Shown piece after piece: positions 156-54,309 of a stretch of DNA of 64,000 bases (positions are counted from its first letter, which is position 1; each line of letters opens with the position of its first letter). The notes beneath the pieces were generated by a model. It did not search any database. It saw only the letters and a program-made list of their open reading frames with translations, and was not told the origin of the DNA. The stretch is from contig NZ_CP007174.1 of NCBI RefSeq assembly GCF_000730285.1, forward strand, positions 434,001 to 498,000, read 5' to 3'. The position numbers and the translations under genes are program-made. The DNA is from Candidatus Nitrososphaera evergladensis SR1. Lineage in GTDB: Archaea; Thermoproteota; Nitrososphaeria; Nitrososphaerales; Nitrososphaeraceae.

Positions 156-668
156 CTATGTTACTTCCAGCGCGCCATCGTTGACCGACACGCTGGAGGA
201 TGTCATCTTTATTTTTGCCGCATTGTTAGAAAGCTCTATCCATTCAGAGTTCATGACTATCTTGAGGCCCGACGCCGTTTCTATGGTAATGATGTCTTGG
301 CCCTCTCTGTCGTCAATCTTGATGGTGCCAGACTCTGTCTTTATCATCTTTATCTTGTGGGCCTCTTGCGCGCTGGCAAGGCCATTAACAGGAGATTCGT
401 CCGGATTCCAGAAACAGCCCGTCCAAATCGGCTTGTCGGGGTCACCTTCCTCGAATTCTACCCATACGTTGGCGTCTACAGGAGGCACAAAAAAGAAGCC
501 TGCGTCTGGGGCACAGTACGGCAAGCTGGGCTCGGCCCATCCGCTCATCTCGTCTCCGTATATCGACGTGGTTAGCTTGACTCGGATCCTGCCCTTGAGC
601 TTTGGATCGGCATTGTCGGCTACCTTGCCTCTGAACTTGCCATAGACGCGTTTCCTGCCTTCTATCAT
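156..668 (-). CDS. phage baseplate assembly protein V / VgrG-like spike (gp5 OB-fold family)
   Basis: The 170-residue protein has the layout of gpV/Afp8-type spikes. An OB-fold segment covers about residues 8-95, with the typical LKGRIRVKL strand, the GWAEPSLPY and GFFFVPP turns, and WVEFEEGDPDKPIWTGCFW. A short beta-helical repeat tail follows (KIKMIKTESGTIKIDDREG). The family forms the trimeric membrane-piercing tip of contractile tails. Its ATG overlaps the stop of the upstream hub gene by four bases (ATGA), so the two are probably translationally coupled, as expected for proteins that form a hub-spike complex. The tail is shorter than in T6SS VgrG and carries no visible effector domain. 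Confidence 0.88.
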   Translation of the reverse strand: MIEGRKRVYGKFRGKVADNADPKLKGRIRVKLTTSIYGDEMSGWAEPSLPYCAPDAGFFFVPPVDANVWVEFEEGDPDKPIWTGCFWNPDESPVNGLASAQEAHKIKMIKTESGTIKIDDREGQDIITIETASGLKIVMNSEWIELSNNAAKIKMTSSSVSVNDGALEVT

Positions 669-1804
669 GTGCTGAGCACCGACGCTGTCGAGCCAAGACC
701 ATCGCGCACAAGCTTGAACGACTGCTTGTACTCGCCTTTCTTGATCTCGTGCTTTACCTCCTTGACGTAGTAATAGCCGTCGTGCAAAAAGCCGACGCCT
801 CTTAGGCCGACCAGCTTGCGCGCCTGCAGAACGCCGCCATAAGCAAGCGAGTCAAGTGTACCCGTGGCAATGACAGCGTCTGTGGACTCGTCGGTCTCAG
901 CCTGAGCTTCGCTCATTGCCTGCGCTGCGCTTGCGCTGCTTCTGTTGTATTTCTTCTTTTGTACTCTTGACGCCTGCATAGAAAGAACTGGATAAAGAGA
1001 AAGCGGCGGAAGGCTGCTTCCTGTCACCGTAACGGGTACCTCTTTGTTCGTGACGATATCAACTGTCTTGCCTGTAACAATCGTCGGCTCTGTCACATTG
1101 TACTGAAAGCTGATTGCCTTGAGATTGCTTTCCGAACCCATGTCTAGAGTCAGGGCCTTTTGCGGCGCGCCAGTGTACTTCCTTGGACCCCAGTACGCTC
1201 TGCTCTTGTTAGTAAGAAGGGCCGGCTCTAGGAAGAAAACATAATTGTATTTTCTTGCAAGGTCCTTGATGTGGTCGAGGTCCGTTGACTGCTGGGAAGG
1301 GACCTGGTCTGCTTCGGGATGCCGCACTGGCGACTGCACCTCATGGATGTCCGGCTCAATTCCATGCTGCGTGTACTTGGCGATTATTTTTTCCACGATC
1401 GATTTATCATCCAGACTCGAGTGAGTCGTTGGGCTCTCGTCTTTGCTCATAAAAAAGCTCAGATCCTCGCCTGTTACGACCATCCTAGTTTGTCCTGGCT
1501 GCTGGCTCGGGCTCAGTTGCTTGGTTGTAATTATTCCATTTATGAGGTTCGTCTGGATGCCGCCAAATGTTACAATTATCCTGACTTGGTTGAACGGATT
1601 GAGCAACGGATTTGCGATAAGGGCATAGTCTTGAAGATCCTGCCTGCTCCTGCCAACATTAAAGATGATCTCAAAGCCGTCTGGAGCAATGTCTCTATTT
1701 GTGACCTCGATTGATTCAACAGCGCTGGCGACAGCCTCTGGAACAGGAGTTGGGATGGTGGGTCCTGCCATCAATATGACGTAAACGTTTGTCAGACCTT
1801 CCAT
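665..1804 (-). CDS. phage late control gene D-like baseplate hub protein (gp27/Afp8 hub)
   Basis: The 379-residue protein resembles gpD hubs of contractile tails and extracellular contractile injection systems. Supporting segments are the N-terminal beta region (INGIITTKQLSP, TRMVVTGEDLSFFM), the central IVEKIIAKYTQHGIEPDI helix with the DLDHIKDLARKYNYVFFLE motif, and the C-terminal YYVKEVKHEIKKGEYKQSF strand pair usual in this family. It forms the trimeric adaptor between the inner tube and the spike. The start is the ATG at 1804, 19 bases after the LysM gene. An alanine- and serine-rich linker occupies about residues 290-310. Confidence 0.88.
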   Translation of the reverse strand: MEGLTNVYVILMAGPTIPTPVPEAVASAVESIEVTNRDIAPDGFEIIFNVGRSRQDLQDYALIANPLLNPFNQVRIIVTFGGIQTNLINGIITTKQLSPSQQPGQTRMVVTGEDLSFFMSKDESPTTHSSLDDKSIVEKIIAKYTQHGIEPDIHEVQSPVRHPEADQVPSQQSTDLDHIKDLARKYNYVFFLEPALLTNKSRAYWGPRKYTGAPQKALTLDMGSESNLKAISFQYNVTEPTIVTGKTVDIVTNKEVPVTVTGSSLPPLSLYPVLSMQASRVQKKKYNRSSASAAQAMSEAQAETDESTDAVIATGTLDSLAYGGVLQARKLVGLRGVGFLHDGYYYVKEVKHEIKKGEYKQSFKLVRDGLGSTASVLST

Positions 1805-1823
1805 GGAGGAACTCGCACCTTTC

Positions 1824-2111
1824 TTATCTCCACGGCCTTGCTATTCTTAGCATAAAGCCCGGCTCTTCGGTCAAGTCGAGTGGGTGCATTGCATCATTGG
1901 CGTCGCAAATCTGCCAGAACTGCTCTGGGTCTCCAAACACCCGCGAAGAAATTCTATCCAGCCTGTCGCCGGCCGAGACCGTCAATGCCTGCAACAAGGG
2001 CATTTCTTCGCCCTTTGGAAGAAAGCGCCTCTTCTTGTACGCAACAACGTTTCCGTCCTTTGCAAGGCTTGCATCTTCAATGTTGTAGTATCTGCTGGTG
2101 GGCTGGAACAA
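1824..2111 (-). CDS. LysM-domain tail protein of a contractile injection system
   Basis: This 95-residue protein has a C-terminal LysM-like module. The segment SAGDRLDRISSRVFGDPEQF is followed by WQICDANDAMHPLDLTEEPG, and it ends in a strand resembling the IPRP end of tail LysM proteins. In phage and Afp-type particles such proteins bind the inner tube or baseplate rather than free peptidoglycan, which archaea lack. It lies one base after the tube-protein gene on the same strand. In Afp7-type proteins the tube-adaptor domain and LysM are commonly one polypeptide; here they are separate genes. Confidence 0.82.
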   Translation of the reverse strand: MFQPTSRYYNIEDASLAKDGNVVAYKKRRFLPKGEEMPLLQALTVSAGDRLDRISSRVFGDPEQFWQICDANDAMHPLDLTEEPGFMLRIARPWR

Positions 2112-2112
2112 T

Positions 2113-2877
2113 TCACAGCGCTCCTGATATTGTCCCGGACACGCTTGTGATGGACCCTATTGCGGCCATCGTTTCCTTTAGAATCTGGTGTGACAAGAAT
2201 ACCGAATAGCCCGGATGGGTTACCCTGAAATCGTTGTACGTGAGCACATCGAGTGAAACCGATACTTCGGCCACTATCGGGTTGAGAAGCTGATCATAGT
2301 ACTGTTCGGTGATGGTAAAGTTCGAGATCTTGACCGGCACTACTCTGCTTGGACCCCAGACAAAAAGCGTAAATGGTCCTTCCGGAGGCGCTATCTCTAT
2401 GGCACCCGTAGCCGCAAGCGCGTTCTTTTCGATCGCCCAAGAGCTCTTCGGATAGATCATCATCTCTAGGGCAGAAAGCTGAGGGTAGATGCCCATGGCG
2501 ACCGTAGATGGATTTTGCTCCGGCTTTTCTAGCCGATCCGCCGCGTCAATTTCTATCTTTAGCGTGATTGTTTCCTTTGGCGGTCCCGTGAGTCTCTGAG
2601 TCTCCACGGTGCTAATCGTCTGTTGCAGCCTGTTGGACTGAACCTGGCGAGTGAGAGTCTCGGGATTATACTGAAAAATTATGACCTGTGGTACAAAGCC
2701 TGCGGGATCGTACGATATGAGAGCACCCTTGATCAGTCTGGGTGAGCGGGGAAAACTCGACAATACCTGATTCGCATTTGTCCTGGAATTATAAAAAGGC
2801 TCTTGTACCCTTATAAGGTCAGCCAAATTACTGTAAGAGTCAAAGCTTTGAAATTGTTGTTTGCATTTATCGACCAC
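2113..2877 (-). CDS. contractile injection system tube/adaptor protein, N-terminal domain (Afp7-like)
   Basis: The 254-residue protein shows the pattern of the CIS_tube domain: GALISYDPAGFVPQVIIFQY followed by NPETLTRQ, then a conserved middle (LKIEIDAADRLEKPEQN, YPQLSALEMMIYP), GPFTLFVWGPSRVVPVKI, and a terminal AEVSVSLDVLTYNDF. The family caps the inner tube or links tube and baseplate. The longest frame begins with GTG at 2875-2877; no ATG precedes the conserved core, so the start is uncertain and could be internal. It is the first visible gene of the minus-strand operon, with a 12-bp inverted repeat about 60 bases upstream. Confidence 0.82.
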   Translation of the reverse strand: MVDKCKQQFQSFDSYSNLADLIRVQEPFYNSRTNANQVLSSFPRSPRLIKGALISYDPAGFVPQVIIFQYNPETLTRQVQSNRLQQTISTVETQRLTGPPKETITLKIEIDAADRLEKPEQNPSTVAMGIYPQLSALEMMIYPKSSWAIEKNALAATGAIEIAPPEGPFTLFVWGPSRVVPVKISNFTITEQYYDQLLNPIVAEVSVSLDVLTYNDFRVTHPGYSVFLSHQILKETMAAIGSITSVSGTISGAL

Positions 2878-9038: not shown

Positions 9039-10022
9039 ATGGCGAATCATTCAGTTGAGGGAAACAAACTGATATTTTATTCTGCATTTGCTGCTTTAGG
9101 CTTGGCACTCGTGCCGTTTGGCTTTACTCTTTCTAACAATTTAGCTTCCTCTCAGGCCGCTGGAATTTCAGACATTTTCACTTGCTATATTAACGACGGC
9201 AAGTCCGCGCAGGCAGCTTCTGGCGGACAGCCTGGTCAGCCCGGTGAACCCGGCGCGGGTCCAACCGGTGGTCAAGGTGGCGCAGGCGGAGCTGGAGGTC
9301 AGGGTGGAACTGCTGGACTTCACACACTTAATTGCTCGACCTTGACTGGAGAAATCCTCAATTGCTATAATGTTACCTCGATTGCGAATACAAATAGTAC
9401 ACAGAGAGGTCCTAGCGGACAGCCTGGTCAGCCCGGTGAACCCGGCGCGGGTCCAACCGGAGGCGCTGGAGGTGAACCTGGCGAGCCCGGTCAGGGCGGT
9501 GAAGGGCCTGGTGGCGGCGCTGGAGGTGATGCCGGCAGCGGAGGTGCAGGCGGAGCTGGCGGCATTCTTGGTAGTGGCGGTGCAGGCGGCCAAGGTGGCG
9601 CAGGCGGAGCTGGAGGTCAGGGTGGAACTGCTGGACTTCACACACTTAATTGCTCGACCTTGACTGGAGAAATCCTCAATTGCTATAATGTTACCTCGAT
9701 TGCGAATACAAATAGTACACAGAGAGGTCCTAGCGGACAGCCTGGTCAGCCCGGTGAACCCGGCGCGGGTCCAACCGGTGGTCAAGGTGGCGCAGGCGGA
9801 GCTGGCGGTGCAGGCGGCCAAGGTGGGAGTAGCAGCATTCTTGACACCGCTGGCAATGGAAATCCTCTGATCTGCATCAACAACAGTAGCGGCATTCTTG
9901 GTAGTGGCGGTGCAGGCGGCGCTGGCGGACAGCCTGGTCAGCCCGGTGAACCCGGCGCGGGTCCAACCGGTGGTCAAGGTGGCGCAGGCGGCGCTGGCGG
10001 TGCAGGCGGCCAAGGTGGCTAA
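9039..10022 (+). CDS. exported collagen-like Gly-rich protein with internal duplications
   Basis: The 327-residue protein has an N-terminal hydrophobic segment (residues about 10-38, FYSAFAALGLALVPFGFTL) for export or anchoring. The mature part is built from collagen-like GQPGQPGEPGAGPTGG triplet tracts and GGAGGAGGQGG glycine tracts. These alternate with a short non-repetitive module containing LNCSTLTGEILNCYNVTS, which has two cysteines and sequons and occurs twice. The gene contains an exact 188-base direct repeat. It is probably a cell-surface or matrix protein. No enzyme domain is seen, and no sortase-like motif is visible at the C-terminus, which ends in GGAGGQGG. Confidence 0.85.
   Translation: MANHSVEGNKLIFYSAFAALGLALVPFGFTLSNNLASSQAAGISDIFTCYINDGKSAQAASGGQPGQPGEPGAGPTGGQGGAGGAGGQGGTAGLHTLNCSTLTGEILNCYNVTSIANTNSTQRGPSGQPGQPGEPGAGPTGGAGGEPGEPGQGGEGPGGGAGGDAGSGGAGGAGGILGSGGAGGQGGAGGAGGQGGTAGLHTLNCSTLTGEILNCYNVTSIANTNSTQRGPSGQPGQPGEPGAGPTGGQGGAGGAGGAGGQGGSSSILDTAGNGNPLICINNSSGILGSGGAGGAGGQPGQPGEPGAGPTGGQGGAGGAGGAGGQGG
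9273..9460 (+). repeat. 188-base direct repeat, copy 1 (within the collagen-like gene)
   Basis: Bases 9273-9460 and 9591-9778 read identically, 318 bases apart and in the same reading frame. The unit encodes a Gly tract, the two-cysteine module and a collagen-like tract. Perfect identity points to recent duplication or ongoing homogenisation. Confidence 0.9.
9591..9778 (+). repeat. 188-base direct repeat, copy 2
   Basis: This is the second exact copy of 9273-9460. A third, partial echo of the collagen-like tract follows at about 9925-10020. Recombination between the two copies would remove or add 106 codons without breaking the frame. Confidence 0.9.
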
Positions 10023-10697: not shown

Positions 10698-11738
<1,041 letters not shown>

Positions 11739-50509: not shown

Positions 50510-51295
50510 TCAGCTGCCGCCACTTGGCATTAGCCTGTATCTGCGTATGATCTTTTTTTCCTGTCCCTTTTGCTGAGCAATTCTTTGGGCAAGCGTCCCT
50601 TCCTTGCGTGCTAATCTTGAAGGCCTATCCTCCGGTTTTGTCAGCTCGATCTTTATTCGAAAAGGCGTCTTGGACGTAAATACTAATCCCTGCGACGGGT
50701 CGATTCTTATCCTATTTGGATTAATTTGATTCTGCGCGGTACACTCGATCTTGATGGGTTGAGGATTCCTCTGCGTCTTGCCAATTTCCGGGTAGTTCAC
50801 CATAAGTTCTGCCTTGGCATTGTTTAGCGTATTTGTAACAGAGTAAGTTCCAGGCCGAATGATGGTGGTGGAAAAGATGTCATCCTCCTTTAATTCAGAG
50901 CTATCAAATACCTTGACCTGGGAGCCTTTTTCATACTTGCGAATCTCTACTACATAACCGCCAGGCCCTGTGGAGACATAAAATACTCCGTATCCTCCCC
51001 TTCTCAATGTGAAACGATCACTGGCTGTATCCTTTAGATCAACTTTGATCTGTTCGGCGGCTGCAGCATTTGTGTTAGTGGCGGCGGCCGCCTGAGAACT
51101 ACTACTAATAATATTATTATCCTCTACAACTGTAACGGTGAATCTTTGCGTCTTGATGGGTCCCTTCATCACAATGCCTTCGTACTCGCCAGGCTGTGCA
51201 AATCTGTGTATGACGGCGGACAGTATCGAAAGTGATCCGCTGTCTACATTTACTTGGGTGAACAGGTGGCGGTTGATATTATTTATTAGATTCAT
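50510..51295 (-). CDS. unrecognised protein following the 697-codon gene (261 aa)
   Basis: The N-terminal part resembles a short beta domain (LSAVIHRFAQPGEYEGIVMK) that ends in an Ala/Asn-rich linker (about residues 60-85). The rest is beta-rich (RFTLRRGGYGVFYVSTGPGG, IIRPGTYSVTNTLNNAKAEL, RIRIDPSQGLVFTSKTPFRI) with a basic end. It starts four bases after the stop of the upstream gene, so both belong to one transcript. A structural or adhesive role for the pair is possible. No family is recognised. Confidence 0.7.
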   Translation of the reverse strand: MNLINNINRHLFTQVNVDSGSLSILSAVIHRFAQPGEYEGIVMKGPIKTQRFTVTVVEDNNIISSSSQAAAATNTNAAAAEQIKVDLKDTASDRFTLRRGGYGVFYVSTGPGGYVVEIRKYEKGSQVKVFDSSELKEDDIFSTTIIRPGTYSVTNTLNNAKAELMVNYPEIGKTQRNPQPIKIECTAQNQINPNRIRIDPSQGLVFTSKTPFRIKIELTKPEDRPSRLARKEGTLAQRIAQQKGQEKKIIRRYRLMPSGGS

Positions 51296-51299
51296 GTCT

Positions 51300-53294
51300 C
51301 TAATTTCCCACGTCTCCTTCTACTATCATTTCATTACCGCCGCTATTAACTCTGATACCTAAAAACTCGATTGGAATCTTTACCGGGATTAGTGGTGCAA
51401 CAGGATTTGCAGGCGTGGGGACGGGGTTTGCTGGAAGGACCTCCAAGGGGTCCTCGAGCTCAAAGAGCGTTATGGCGATATACTGACTTATGGCATCGAT
51501 GAGCGCTTGAAATATTCCTAGGTTGCCAATCAAGTCCAGCAGGAATTCTCCAACGTCGTCGGGGATGTCCAGGACAGTTCTGATTATCCCTTCAATACCT
51601 CCAAGAACAAAGTCGATAAAGTCTATTGCCCAGTCTGGAAGCCCGAGAGAGCCAAGGAGGTTATCGATTGCGTCGACTATGAGGTTGTGAAATAGATCTC
51701 CTGCGGTGTCGGCTATGTCAATTATGTCAAGATCGATTGGAAGTGTTGGTACCAGAGTAATCTGCCATCTGTTTGACAACCCTCCAGAACCAACGCCGTA
51801 GAACACCTTGGGGATTGCGCTAAAAGTTATTTCAGACGTTATGATTCCGCTTAGGTCAAGCGGTATGGAGATATCCGGGCTACCGCTGAAAAGGTCTATG
51901 GAAGGCGCCCTAACTAGGCATCCGCCAAAGGGGTTGGGAATAATGCAAAATCCCCCTATGGTGACCGTGGGGATGTCAATGCCAATATTGACATGCAGCG
52001 TGTCCCACTTGACATCCAGTTCGCTTACCACTATTGAGCCACTGCTGCGCAGGTCAATCGTGCCACCTTCAAGATGTGCTGCTACCGAGTAAGATGCAGT
52101 GAATATGCCGGAGCTGCCTGTGCCTGATTTGACAAACTTGAAGCCCTTGATGACGGCACCGTAAATCTCCTTGAAGGCTTGTTCGGATATTGCAGCCGTC
52201 AGGTCAAAGGTTCCAGTCCGAGTGCGAGGCCGGACAGTTCTGGTTATTGTTCCTCCTCCTCCGCCACCACCGCCCCCACTACCTCCGCCTCCGCTGCCCG
52301 ATGGAGAAATCACTATGTCAAGATCCACCTTGTCTAAATTGATAAATGTCTTGAGTTGGTCGTCCTCTATTGCAGGGTTGTTAGGGACTGCCGTGGATGC
52401 CGAAACTTGGATATCTCCTGAAACTTGGACATCGTCGCCTGGATTAGGGCTTGGCAGTTCAAATAAGCCAAATGCCAGTTTTGAAATGAATTCTGCAACA
52501 GGGGGAAATATTCCGTGATTCAGGACTAGCCTGGCGTAACATTCGATTGCGTTTTCCATACCTTCCGGCTTTAGGTCTACTATCTCTATGCCGTCCACTC
52601 TGGGCTCTATTCTTTGATTTCCGACCAGCCCTGTTATCTTGCATCCTGCCGTTGCGAACAGGTCAAGGCAAAAACATTCCAGCCGCGTTGCTGGCAAAGT
52701 TATGTTACTGTTATCGCCATCTCGACCCGGCAGGGAAGCGCCGGCATGAGGTCCCAGAATATCCTGCAGAGCTGCATTGGAATTTGATATGATACGACGT
52801 TCTCTGGCAAAGCTACTGGCAAAAGTTGATAGTGATGATGATGTTGTTGCCAATTTTCCGGGCAGCACTATTTCTTTTGATGGGCAGCCAATTCCTGCAC
52901 ACACTCTAAAGTGCACGGCCAGGCGCTGACTTGCAAGAGGACTGAGTTCAGGAGGGAGGCTGAATACGTTCCCTCTGAAAAAGTCCATTTCCCCTTTAGA
53001 AAGTTGAACTCCAAAATTCAGCCCCAAGTTGGTCGGACCTAAAGAAGTATCCTGCGGAAGGCCACTCAATCCAATGACTGGCAGTGGGTCAAGAACCGTG
53101 ACCAGAGGGTTCCGATTTCGAATCACTTCTGGGGCTGCATCGATGCGCTCACAAAGTAATTGAGGGTTGGATGCTACTAACGACGTCCCATAGTTAAAGA
53201 GGGATGGACGCTGGCGCATGATATGCCGAATTACTCTATTAATGCCCTCATCATGGATCGCAGCAAAAATGTCACAGTTATTAGTTAAGGACAT
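51300..53294 (-). CDS. large protein with QRPSLFNYGT-type N-terminus and hydrophobic amphipathic C-terminal part
   Basis: ATG 53294 (MSLTNNCDIFAAIHDEGINR) gives 664 residues; an upstream in-frame extension of 33 codons is not conserved-looking. The N-terminus has VIRHIMRQRPSLFNYGTSLV and later FRVCAGIGCPSKEI. A Gly-rich linker (GSGGGGSGGGGGGGGG) separates it from a beta-rich region (NIGIDIPTVTIGG, SPDISIPLDLSG) and from long aliphatic helices (IVDAIDNLLGSLGLPDWAID, FIDFVLGGIEGIIRTVLDI). I recall similar N-termini in proteins near phage-tail-like gene clusters, and the second half could be a lipid-binding TULIP-like fold. Both points are unverified. No signal peptide is evident. Confidence 0.75.
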   Translation of the reverse strand: MSLTNNCDIFAAIHDEGINRVIRHIMRQRPSLFNYGTSLVASNPQLLCERIDAAPEVIRNRNPLVTVLDPLPVIGLSGLPQDTSLGPTNLGLNFGVQLSKGEMDFFRGNVFSLPPELSPLASQRLAVHFRVCAGIGCPSKEIVLPGKLATTSSSLSTFASSFARERRIISNSNAALQDILGPHAGASLPGRDGDNSNITLPATRLECFCLDLFATAGCKITGLVGNQRIEPRVDGIEIVDLKPEGMENAIECYARLVLNHGIFPPVAEFISKLAFGLFELPSPNPGDDVQVSGDIQVSASTAVPNNPAIEDDQLKTFINLDKVDLDIVISPSGSGGGGSGGGGGGGGGTITRTVRPRTRTGTFDLTAAISEQAFKEIYGAVIKGFKFVKSGTGSSGIFTASYSVAAHLEGGTIDLRSSGSIVVSELDVKWDTLHVNIGIDIPTVTIGGFCIIPNPFGGCLVRAPSIDLFSGSPDISIPLDLSGIITSEITFSAIPKVFYGVGSGGLSNRWQITLVPTLPIDLDIIDIADTAGDLFHNLIVDAIDNLLGSLGLPDWAIDFIDFVLGGIEGIIRTVLDIPDDVGEFLLDLIGNLGIFQALIDAISQYIAITLFELEDPLEVLPANPVPTPANPVAPLIPVKIPIEFLGIRVNSGGNEMIVEGDVGN

Positions 53295-53477
53295 TATTGT
53301 GTGTCCAGATTTGGGACTTTTAACCATTGTGTAGGGAAGTTCGCTTTTATCTTGCCTTTGAAAGTATGTGCCATATACTTTGTAATATAACATGCAGCCG
53401 CAGTGTCTTTCAATATATCATACAAATGAAATTTTCTTTGTAATTAGTTGAAATATTTCTGCAGTGACCGCCGTAAC

Positions 53478-53633: not shown

Positions 53634-53775
53634 CGAGACAACAACAATAACAATTGCAACTAACTTGAAGGGAAGGGCCGATCGCAGTCTTTTATTACTT
53701 CTTTGTGCCATATCACTATGAGAAAGAGGAACGGAAAAAAGAGAGATAGGTGGTGATGGCCGCGCTCCATTGGTA

Positions 53776-54309
53776 GTGGATTATCAGTTTCTCAACTCGC
53801 TTTGTGAGCAAATTCTAGCGAGGGCTAATTCTATTCGATGGACAGCCATTGCAAGCGACAATGGTGTAATCCTAAGTTCTAAGCAAAGGCCCGGCTTGTT
53901 GCCCCTTTTGACACAGGAGGAAAATGAGGAATATGTCCTCTCCGCGATATCCCGGCATAAGACTAGGACAAAATTTGAAACAAAAATAGGAAAACTAAGG
54001 TATGCCTTTGGAAAGTATGAAGGATTGAATCGTGCTACCATACCAATTACAAAGCATCATTATCTGCTCTTGACTATTGACAAGGAAGAAAAGAATTTTG
54101 ACTCGATAATAACGGAAAAGATCCTTCCGCTCATTGACAATAATATCAATCGGTTCACAGACTCCCCGATGGAAAAGGATCCTGCCAGCGAATATGAATT
54201 AGGTACTTTTAGATGTATCACCTGTGCAAAAGAGTTCTTGACCAAAGAGGATGCCGATGAACACCACTATGAAACTCATAAACAAGAATCAATTCATGCT
54301 AACGAATAG
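53776..54309 (+). CDS. DUF6659-like protein fused to a C2H2 zinc finger
   Basis: The protein starts with GTG 53776 or TTG 53770; no ATG is available. Residues about 1-125 match the 36875 protein in order and motif (LCEQILARANSIRWTAIASD, FETKIGKLRYAFGKYEGLNR then ATIPI, HHYLLLTIDKEEK). The C-terminus adds a finger (FRCITCAKEFLTKEDADEHH then YETH) of the same type as the 46990 protein. The fusion suggests that the DUF6659-like domain works with a nucleic-acid or protein-binding finger. Confidence 0.75.
   Translation: MDYQFLNSLCEQILARANSIRWTAIASDNGVILSSKQRPGLLPLLTQEENEEYVLSAISRHKTRTKFETKIGKLRYAFGKYEGLNRATIPITKHHYLLLTIDKEEKNFDSIITEKILPLIDNNINRFTDSPMEKDPASEYELGTFRCITCAKEFLTKEDADEHHYETHKQESIHANE

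What the first reader, a model, noticed from the sequence alone, without database searches (positions are those of the whole stretch)
50510..53294. Unusual two-gene unit that may belong to the injection system
The 664-residue protein has a distinctive N-terminus (GINRVIRHIMRQRPSLFNYG), a poly-Gly linker, a possible lipid-binding region and long amphipathic helices. A second protein follows after four bases. I recall related N-termini near phage-tail-like clusters, so the pair could be a cargo, anchor or release factor for the tail complex at the left edge.
Basis: inference. Interest (0 to 1): 0.6.

Follow-up and report, generated by a model that had tools for sequence, protein, structure and literature searches.

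The report
Unnamed tandem lipid-binding protein pair

Summary
Two co-directional minus-strand genes lie at 50510-53294: a 664-aa protein (P1) and, four bases later, a 261-aa protein (P2). The guess that P1 is a TULIP (tubular lipid-binding) protein is supported by an AlphaFold2 model whose best PDB matches are LBP, CETP and BPI (E 3e-5 to 3e-4); the model's confidence is modest. No member matches a curated family above its cut-off (Pfam, NCBIfam).

The pair is a conserved module in about 8% of sampled archaeal relatives and, rarely, in Actinomycetota, Chloroflexota, Hydrogenophaga and Bacteroidota. P2 follows P1 in every complete copy. In most bacterial loci P1 is two genes, split at the poly-Gly linker, so it is a three-part module. 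Archaeal and bacterial copies form separate clades.

The injection-system link is not supported. A complete eCIS does lie about 48 kb away, but 18 of 23 homologue-bearing genomes have no contractile sheath gene, and P1 and P2 carry no eCIS cargo domain. One bacterium (Geodermatophilaceae) does have the pair among eCIS cargo genes.

Most likely function: a signal-peptide-less tandem-TULIP carrier of a lipid or other hydrophobic ligand, working with the beta-sandwich partner P2. The ligand is unknown.

The parts
51300..53294 (-). P1: 664-aa tandem TULIP-like protein (likely true start Met34 of the 697-codon ORF ending at 53393)
52251..53294 (-). P1 N-terminal half with linker (residues 1-348), motif GINRVIRHIMRQRPSLFNYG, six near-universal Cys (48, 132, 137, 207, 209, 252); a separate gene in many bacteria
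52251..52298 (-). Poly-Gly linker (residues 333-348); the place where P1 is split into two genes in Hydrogenophaga, Bacteroidota and most Chloroflexota
51300..52220 (-). P1 C-terminal half (about residues 359-664): beta sheet, GGFCIIPNPFGGC loop, hydrophobic/amphipathic helices, conserved LIPVxIPIE segment near the end
50510..51295 (-). P2: 261-aa all-beta partner (beta-sandwich-like, cupredoxin-like at best), starts 4 bases after P1

Best explanation
The pair is a patchily distributed, soluble module that binds a lipid or other hydrophobic molecule. P1 is a pseudodimeric, BPI/LBP/CETP-like tubular lipid-binding protein: two TULIP-like halves, each a beta sheet wrapped around a helix, joined by a flexible Gly linker. 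P2 is a small beta-sandwich protein always encoded with it, probably its stoichiometric partner or docking subunit. Neither has a signal peptide, so the complex is made in the cytosol and either shuttles a hydrophobic ligand there or is released by a non-Sec route or lysis. Shown by computation: gene order, conservation of the pair, the split at the linker, lack of signal peptides, lack of an eCIS cargo domain. Supported but not proven: the TULIP fold. Inferred: ligand binding, P1-P2 complex, cellular site.
For: AF2 model of P1: top four PDB matches are LBP (twice), CETP and BPI, E 3.2e-5 to 2.7e-4, probability 0.80-0.95; ranks 5-20 hold JHBP, Takeout, SPLUNC1, a dust-mite allergen of this fold and OrfX2. 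The secondary-structure order of both halves (helix, long antiparallel strands, long helix) is that of a TULIP. P2 is next to P1 in all 8 intact archaeal cases and in every bacterial locus that extends far enough, gaps mostly -8 to +4 bases. Splitting into N and C genes at the linker shows that the two halves are autonomous domains. No Sec/Tat-like N-terminus in any member examined.
Against: The P1 model is of modest confidence (mean pLDDT 62, pTM 0.45) and TM-scores are low. The N and C profiles do not detectably match each other (hhalign probability 7%) and no PDB or Pfam sequence hit supports TULIP. Six conserved Cys in the N half and a partly co-lost set in the C half could mean a metal site or disulfides, which a cytosolic lipid carrier would not need. 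No lipid-metabolism gene is a constant neighbour.
Confidence: 0.55

Rival explanations
1. The pair is an accessory or cargo of the extracellular contractile injection system: loaded into or anchoring the particle and delivered into target cells, where the TULIP part binds or disturbs membranes.
For: A complete eCIS lies in the same genome, ending about 48 kb from the pair. In Geodermatophilaceae URHA0031 the pair sits between two eCIS_core genes about 5 and 8 kb away, with the sheath about 24 kb away. Lack of a signal peptide is usual for eCIS cargo (own knowledge).
Against: 18 of 23 homologue-bearing genomes lack a sheath by the Pfam model, and a second profile built from archaeal sheaths agrees, including complete or near-complete archaeal genomes. 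No significant enrichment over controls (Fisher p = 0.18 in archaea counting the degraded copy, 0.54 without it; 0/4 vs 13/70 in Chloroflexota). No eCIS_core domain in P1 or P2. No eCIS genes recognised within about 10 kb in the six archaeal neighbourhoods read.
Confidence: 0.12
2. The pair works like the P47/OrfX TULIP clusters: secreted or lysis-released lipid-binding accessory proteins that protect or deliver a partner effector or enzyme.
For: OrfX2 is among the Foldseek hits. P47/OrfX2 also have two TULIP-like domains and bind lipids in vitro (PMC6791001, PMC7020563). Some copies neighbour secreted-type enzymes: an astacin/matrixin protease, a subtilase, a GH5 cellulase. Patchy distribution.
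Against: No constant toxin or enzyme partner; neighbours differ between lineages. No match to any TULIP Pfam family, P47 included, at E <= 1 in any of 16 members.
Confidence: 0.18
3. P1 is not a TULIP but a different metal- or disulfide-stabilised beta protein, with P2 a degenerate cupredoxin; the pair is a redox or metal-handling complex.
For: Six near-universal Cys in the N half; in the C half the outer two of four Cys are lost together in Nitrososphaera. P2's best fold match is circularly permuted azurin (E 8e-3), and the divergent P2-position protein of G380 weakly matches a copper nitrite reductase (E 0.16).
Against: Foldseek favours TULIP for P1 by orders of magnitude over any other fold. 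P2 lacks a conserved Cys/Met/His copper set (one Cys in P2).
Confidence: 0.15

Closest known systems
BPI / LBP / CETP (eukaryotic tandem TULIP proteins)
   Same: Predicted two-half tubular lipid-binding architecture; best structural matches
   Different: No sequence similarity, no signal peptide, six conserved N-half Cys, long Gly linker, halves encoded by separate genes in many bacteria, constant P2 partner gene
P47 / OrfX2 / OrfX3 (bacterial TULIP proteins of orfX-p47 clusters)
   Same: Bacterial, two TULIP-like domains (PMC6791001); OrfX2 appears in the Foldseek list at E 0.29
   Different: No Pfam match to P47 in any member; no toxin cluster; present in archaea; different partner protein
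DUF4403 (bacterial pseudodimeric BPI-like family, PMC6791001)
   Same: Full-length BPI-like pseudodimer in prokaryotes
   Different: No Pfam match
eCIS cargo proteins (eCIS_core, PF13699)
   Same: One genomic neighbourhood in Geodermatophilaceae
   Different: No eCIS_core domain; most carriers lack any sheath gene

Membership tests
TULIP superfamily | TULIP super-roll fold (twisted beta sheet around a long helix) | tested here: inconclusive
   AF2 plus Foldseek: top hits LBP, CETP, BPI (E 3e-5 to 3e-4), but model pLDDT 62 and low TM-scores
TULIP superfamily | Binds lipid/hydrophobic ligand in the tube | not testable with these tools
   Needs purified protein
P47/OrfX (Pfam Clostridium_P47) | Match to the Pfam profile | tested here: not met
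   No such match at E <= 1 in 16 members
BPI/LBP/CETP, JHBP, DUF4403 Pfam families | Match to the Pfam profile | tested here: not met
   Only three unrelated weak hits among 16 members
eCIS cargo/accessory | eCIS_core (DUF4157) or structural eCIS domain in the protein | tested here: not met
   No such Pfam match in P1 or P2, whereas an eCIS_core protein of this genome matches at E 1e-34
eCIS cargo/accessory | Gene lies with, and occurs with, the injection cluster | tested here: not met
   48 kb away here; 18 of 23 carrier genomes lack a sheath; exception G103
Cupredoxin (P2) | Cupredoxin fold | tested here: inconclusive
   Best hit circularly permuted azurin, E 8e-3, prob 0.87, TM 0.15-0.29
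Cupredoxin (P2) | Type-1 copper ligands (2 His, Cys, Met) | tested here: not met
   No conserved Cys, no internal conserved Met; only one invariant His

The most novel reading that the evidence does not exclude
A previously undescribed prokaryotic lipid-binding complex: a tandem-TULIP protein family shared by archaea and bacteria, whose halves are encoded fused or split, with a constant beta-sandwich partner. It would be, as far as the papers searched show, the first BPI-type lipid carrier reported in archaea, and it would serve cells with chemically different membranes.
Probability: 0.5. Interest if true: 0.6.

Novelty: new variant of a known kind. Interest (0 to 1): 0.45.

Why it matters
Known bacterial TULIP lipid carriers are few (P47, OrfX2, YceB, DUF4403, DUF2140, DUF2993 in PMC6791001), and that paper's text does not mention archaea. 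A small conserved two- or three-gene module in both domains, whose membranes differ in lipid chemistry, would offer a simple system for asking what such carriers bind and whether the TULIP fold predates eukaryotes.

Tried and rejected
Virus, phage or plasmid origin: no relative in IMG/VR, phage or plasmid collections or, at E <= 0.001, among viral predicted structures. The only PHROG hit was one member to a tape-measure family at E 0.002, probably helix composition. Defence system: no PADLOC hit. Internal duplication of P1: the N and C profiles do not match. Named family: nothing above a curated cut-off in Pfam or NCBIfam. Constant third partner: neighbours differ (GH5 cellulase in three genomes of one archaeal genus, astacin/matrixin, subtilase, DUF547, P450/Dyp peroxidase). 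A sheath profile built from six archaeal sheaths gave the same five carriers as the Pfam model, so the missing sheaths are not a sensitivity artefact of the Pfam profile.

Full report
What is there. The window is positions 434001-498000 of a single-contig 2.95 Mb archaeal genome. Size, one contig and a 521-aa sheath protein match Ca. Nitrososphaera evergladensis SR1 (PMC4084955, PMC9230969); this identification is inference. The two genes are on the minus strand: P1 51300-53294 (664 aa) and P2 50510-51295 (261 aa), 4 bases apart. The ORF of P1 could start 33 codons earlier, but nearly all homologues begin at the Met at 53294.

Relatives. Nine of 101 archaeal genomes (the own genome included) carry P1, eight intact and one (G044) a degraded remnant with internal stops. 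Two single-contig genomes of the same genus (G011, G015) lack it. Ten bacterial loci were found among 85,000 species genomes: Nonomuraea, Geodermatophilaceae, Chloroflexota, Hydrogenophaga, Bacteroidota. Samples of whole phyla gave 5 of 400 Chloroflexota, and 1 of 396 Actinomycetota and 1 of 395 Bacteroidota, in the last two only the genome the search was centred on. So the family is rare and patchy. It was not found in viruses, phages or plasmids.

A module, not a single gene. P2 follows P1 in every intact copy whose contig reaches far enough, usually with -8 to +4 bases between, 15-156 in three (in the very divergent G380 copy the following 229-aa gene is taken as the P2 counterpart by position only). 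A P2 profile run over the 101 archaeal genomes finds strong hits in exactly the eight genomes with intact P1, and three marginal hits elsewhere (E about 7e-4). In Hydrogenophaga, both Bacteroidota and most Chloroflexota, P1 is two consecutive genes whose junction is the poly-Gly linker of the archaeal protein (in G318 the N gene is further broken into two ORFs). The linker is therefore a tether between two independent domains, and the ancestral unit may be three genes. On a tree of the C half, archaeal and bacterial copies form two sides of one well-supported branch (95/95), so recent transfer between the domains is not indicated; within bacteria the Chloroflexota copies are interleaved with those of other phyla, as expected from transfer. 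Fused and split forms are mixed among Chloroflexota, so fusion or fission probably happened more than once (reading).

Fold. No Pfam, NCBIfam or PDB sequence match is significant for P1. AlphaFold2 from a 16-row alignment gives mean pLDDT 62, with both halves showing helix, long antiparallel strands and long helix. Foldseek ranks LBP, LBP, CETP and BPI first (E 3.2e-5 to 2.7e-4), then JHBP and Takeout, with SPLUNC1, a dust-mite allergen and OrfX2 within the top 20. That so many of the best hits among 350,000 chains belong to one superfamily makes TULIP likely, although the low TM-scores mean the global placement is not reliable. The two halves are not detectably similar in sequence. P2 is modelled better (pLDDT 80) as a mostly beta protein; its best match is a circularly permuted azurin at E 8e-3, and it lacks copper ligands, so cupredoxin-like is a lead only. 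Six Cys of the N half are conserved in at least 15 of 16 rows; in the C half the outer two of four Cys are missing together in the Nitrososphaera proteins. No member has a signal-peptide-like N-terminus.

Injection system. The window begins with the baseplate-spike gene, and the adjoining sequence holds tube, sheath, T4-type baseplate, baseplate J, Pvc16, AAA ATPase and two eCIS_core proteins, roughly genome positions 406-437 kb. This is a complete eCIS. P1/P2 lie about 48 kb beyond its end. Among 23 genomes with the pair or a remnant, five have a sheath: G000, G044 (which holds only the degraded P1), G103, G104 and G105. eCIS_core is present in G000, G103 and G104, with weak hits in two others. 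The rate is not significantly higher than in controls. The one real link is G103 (Geodermatophilaceae URHA0031), where the pair lies between two eCIS_core genes about 5 and 8 kb away, with the sheath about 24 kb away. Sheath controls were not run for Actinomycetota, Bacteroidota or Proteobacteria, and many genomes are drafts.

Mechanism. The best-supported reading is a soluble, BPI-like carrier of a lipid or other hydrophobic molecule working with P2. Gene order, pairing, split and lack of signal peptide are shown; the fold is supported; ligand, complex and site of action are inferred.

Noticed in passing
window 156-2877 (-) and loci L024/L025 (genome 406-437 kb): Complete eCIS in this ammonia-oxidising archaeon: sheath, gp19 tube, CIS_tube, Phage_base_V spike, Baseplate_J, T4_baseplate, DUF6519, Pvc16_N, AAA ATPase, and two eCIS_core proteins of 661 and 1106 aa.
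   Followed up: partly
L055-L057 (Geodermatophilaceae URHA0031, contig 75-109 kb): P1/P2 pair among eCIS_core genes with a P450 and a Dyp-type peroxidase next to it; the only carrier with the pair inside an eCIS neighbourhood.
   Followed up: partly
window 53770-54309 (+) and L048:11293-11679: A DUF6659-like gene stands divergently upstream of P1 in two genomes (35% identity); in the window it carries a weakly matching C2H2-like zinc finger.
   Followed up: partly
window 9039-10022 and 10698-11738 (+): Two Gly-rich repeat proteins with signal-like N-termini, resembling surface repeat proteins.
   Followed up: no
L049, L050, L052 (one archaeal genus): A GH5-cellulase-like gene lies 130-150 bases upstream of P1, same strand, in all three carriers of the genus.
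   Followed up: no
L054 (G044 contig 21): Degraded remnant of P1 with three internal stops in a genome that also has a sheath gene.
   Followed up: no
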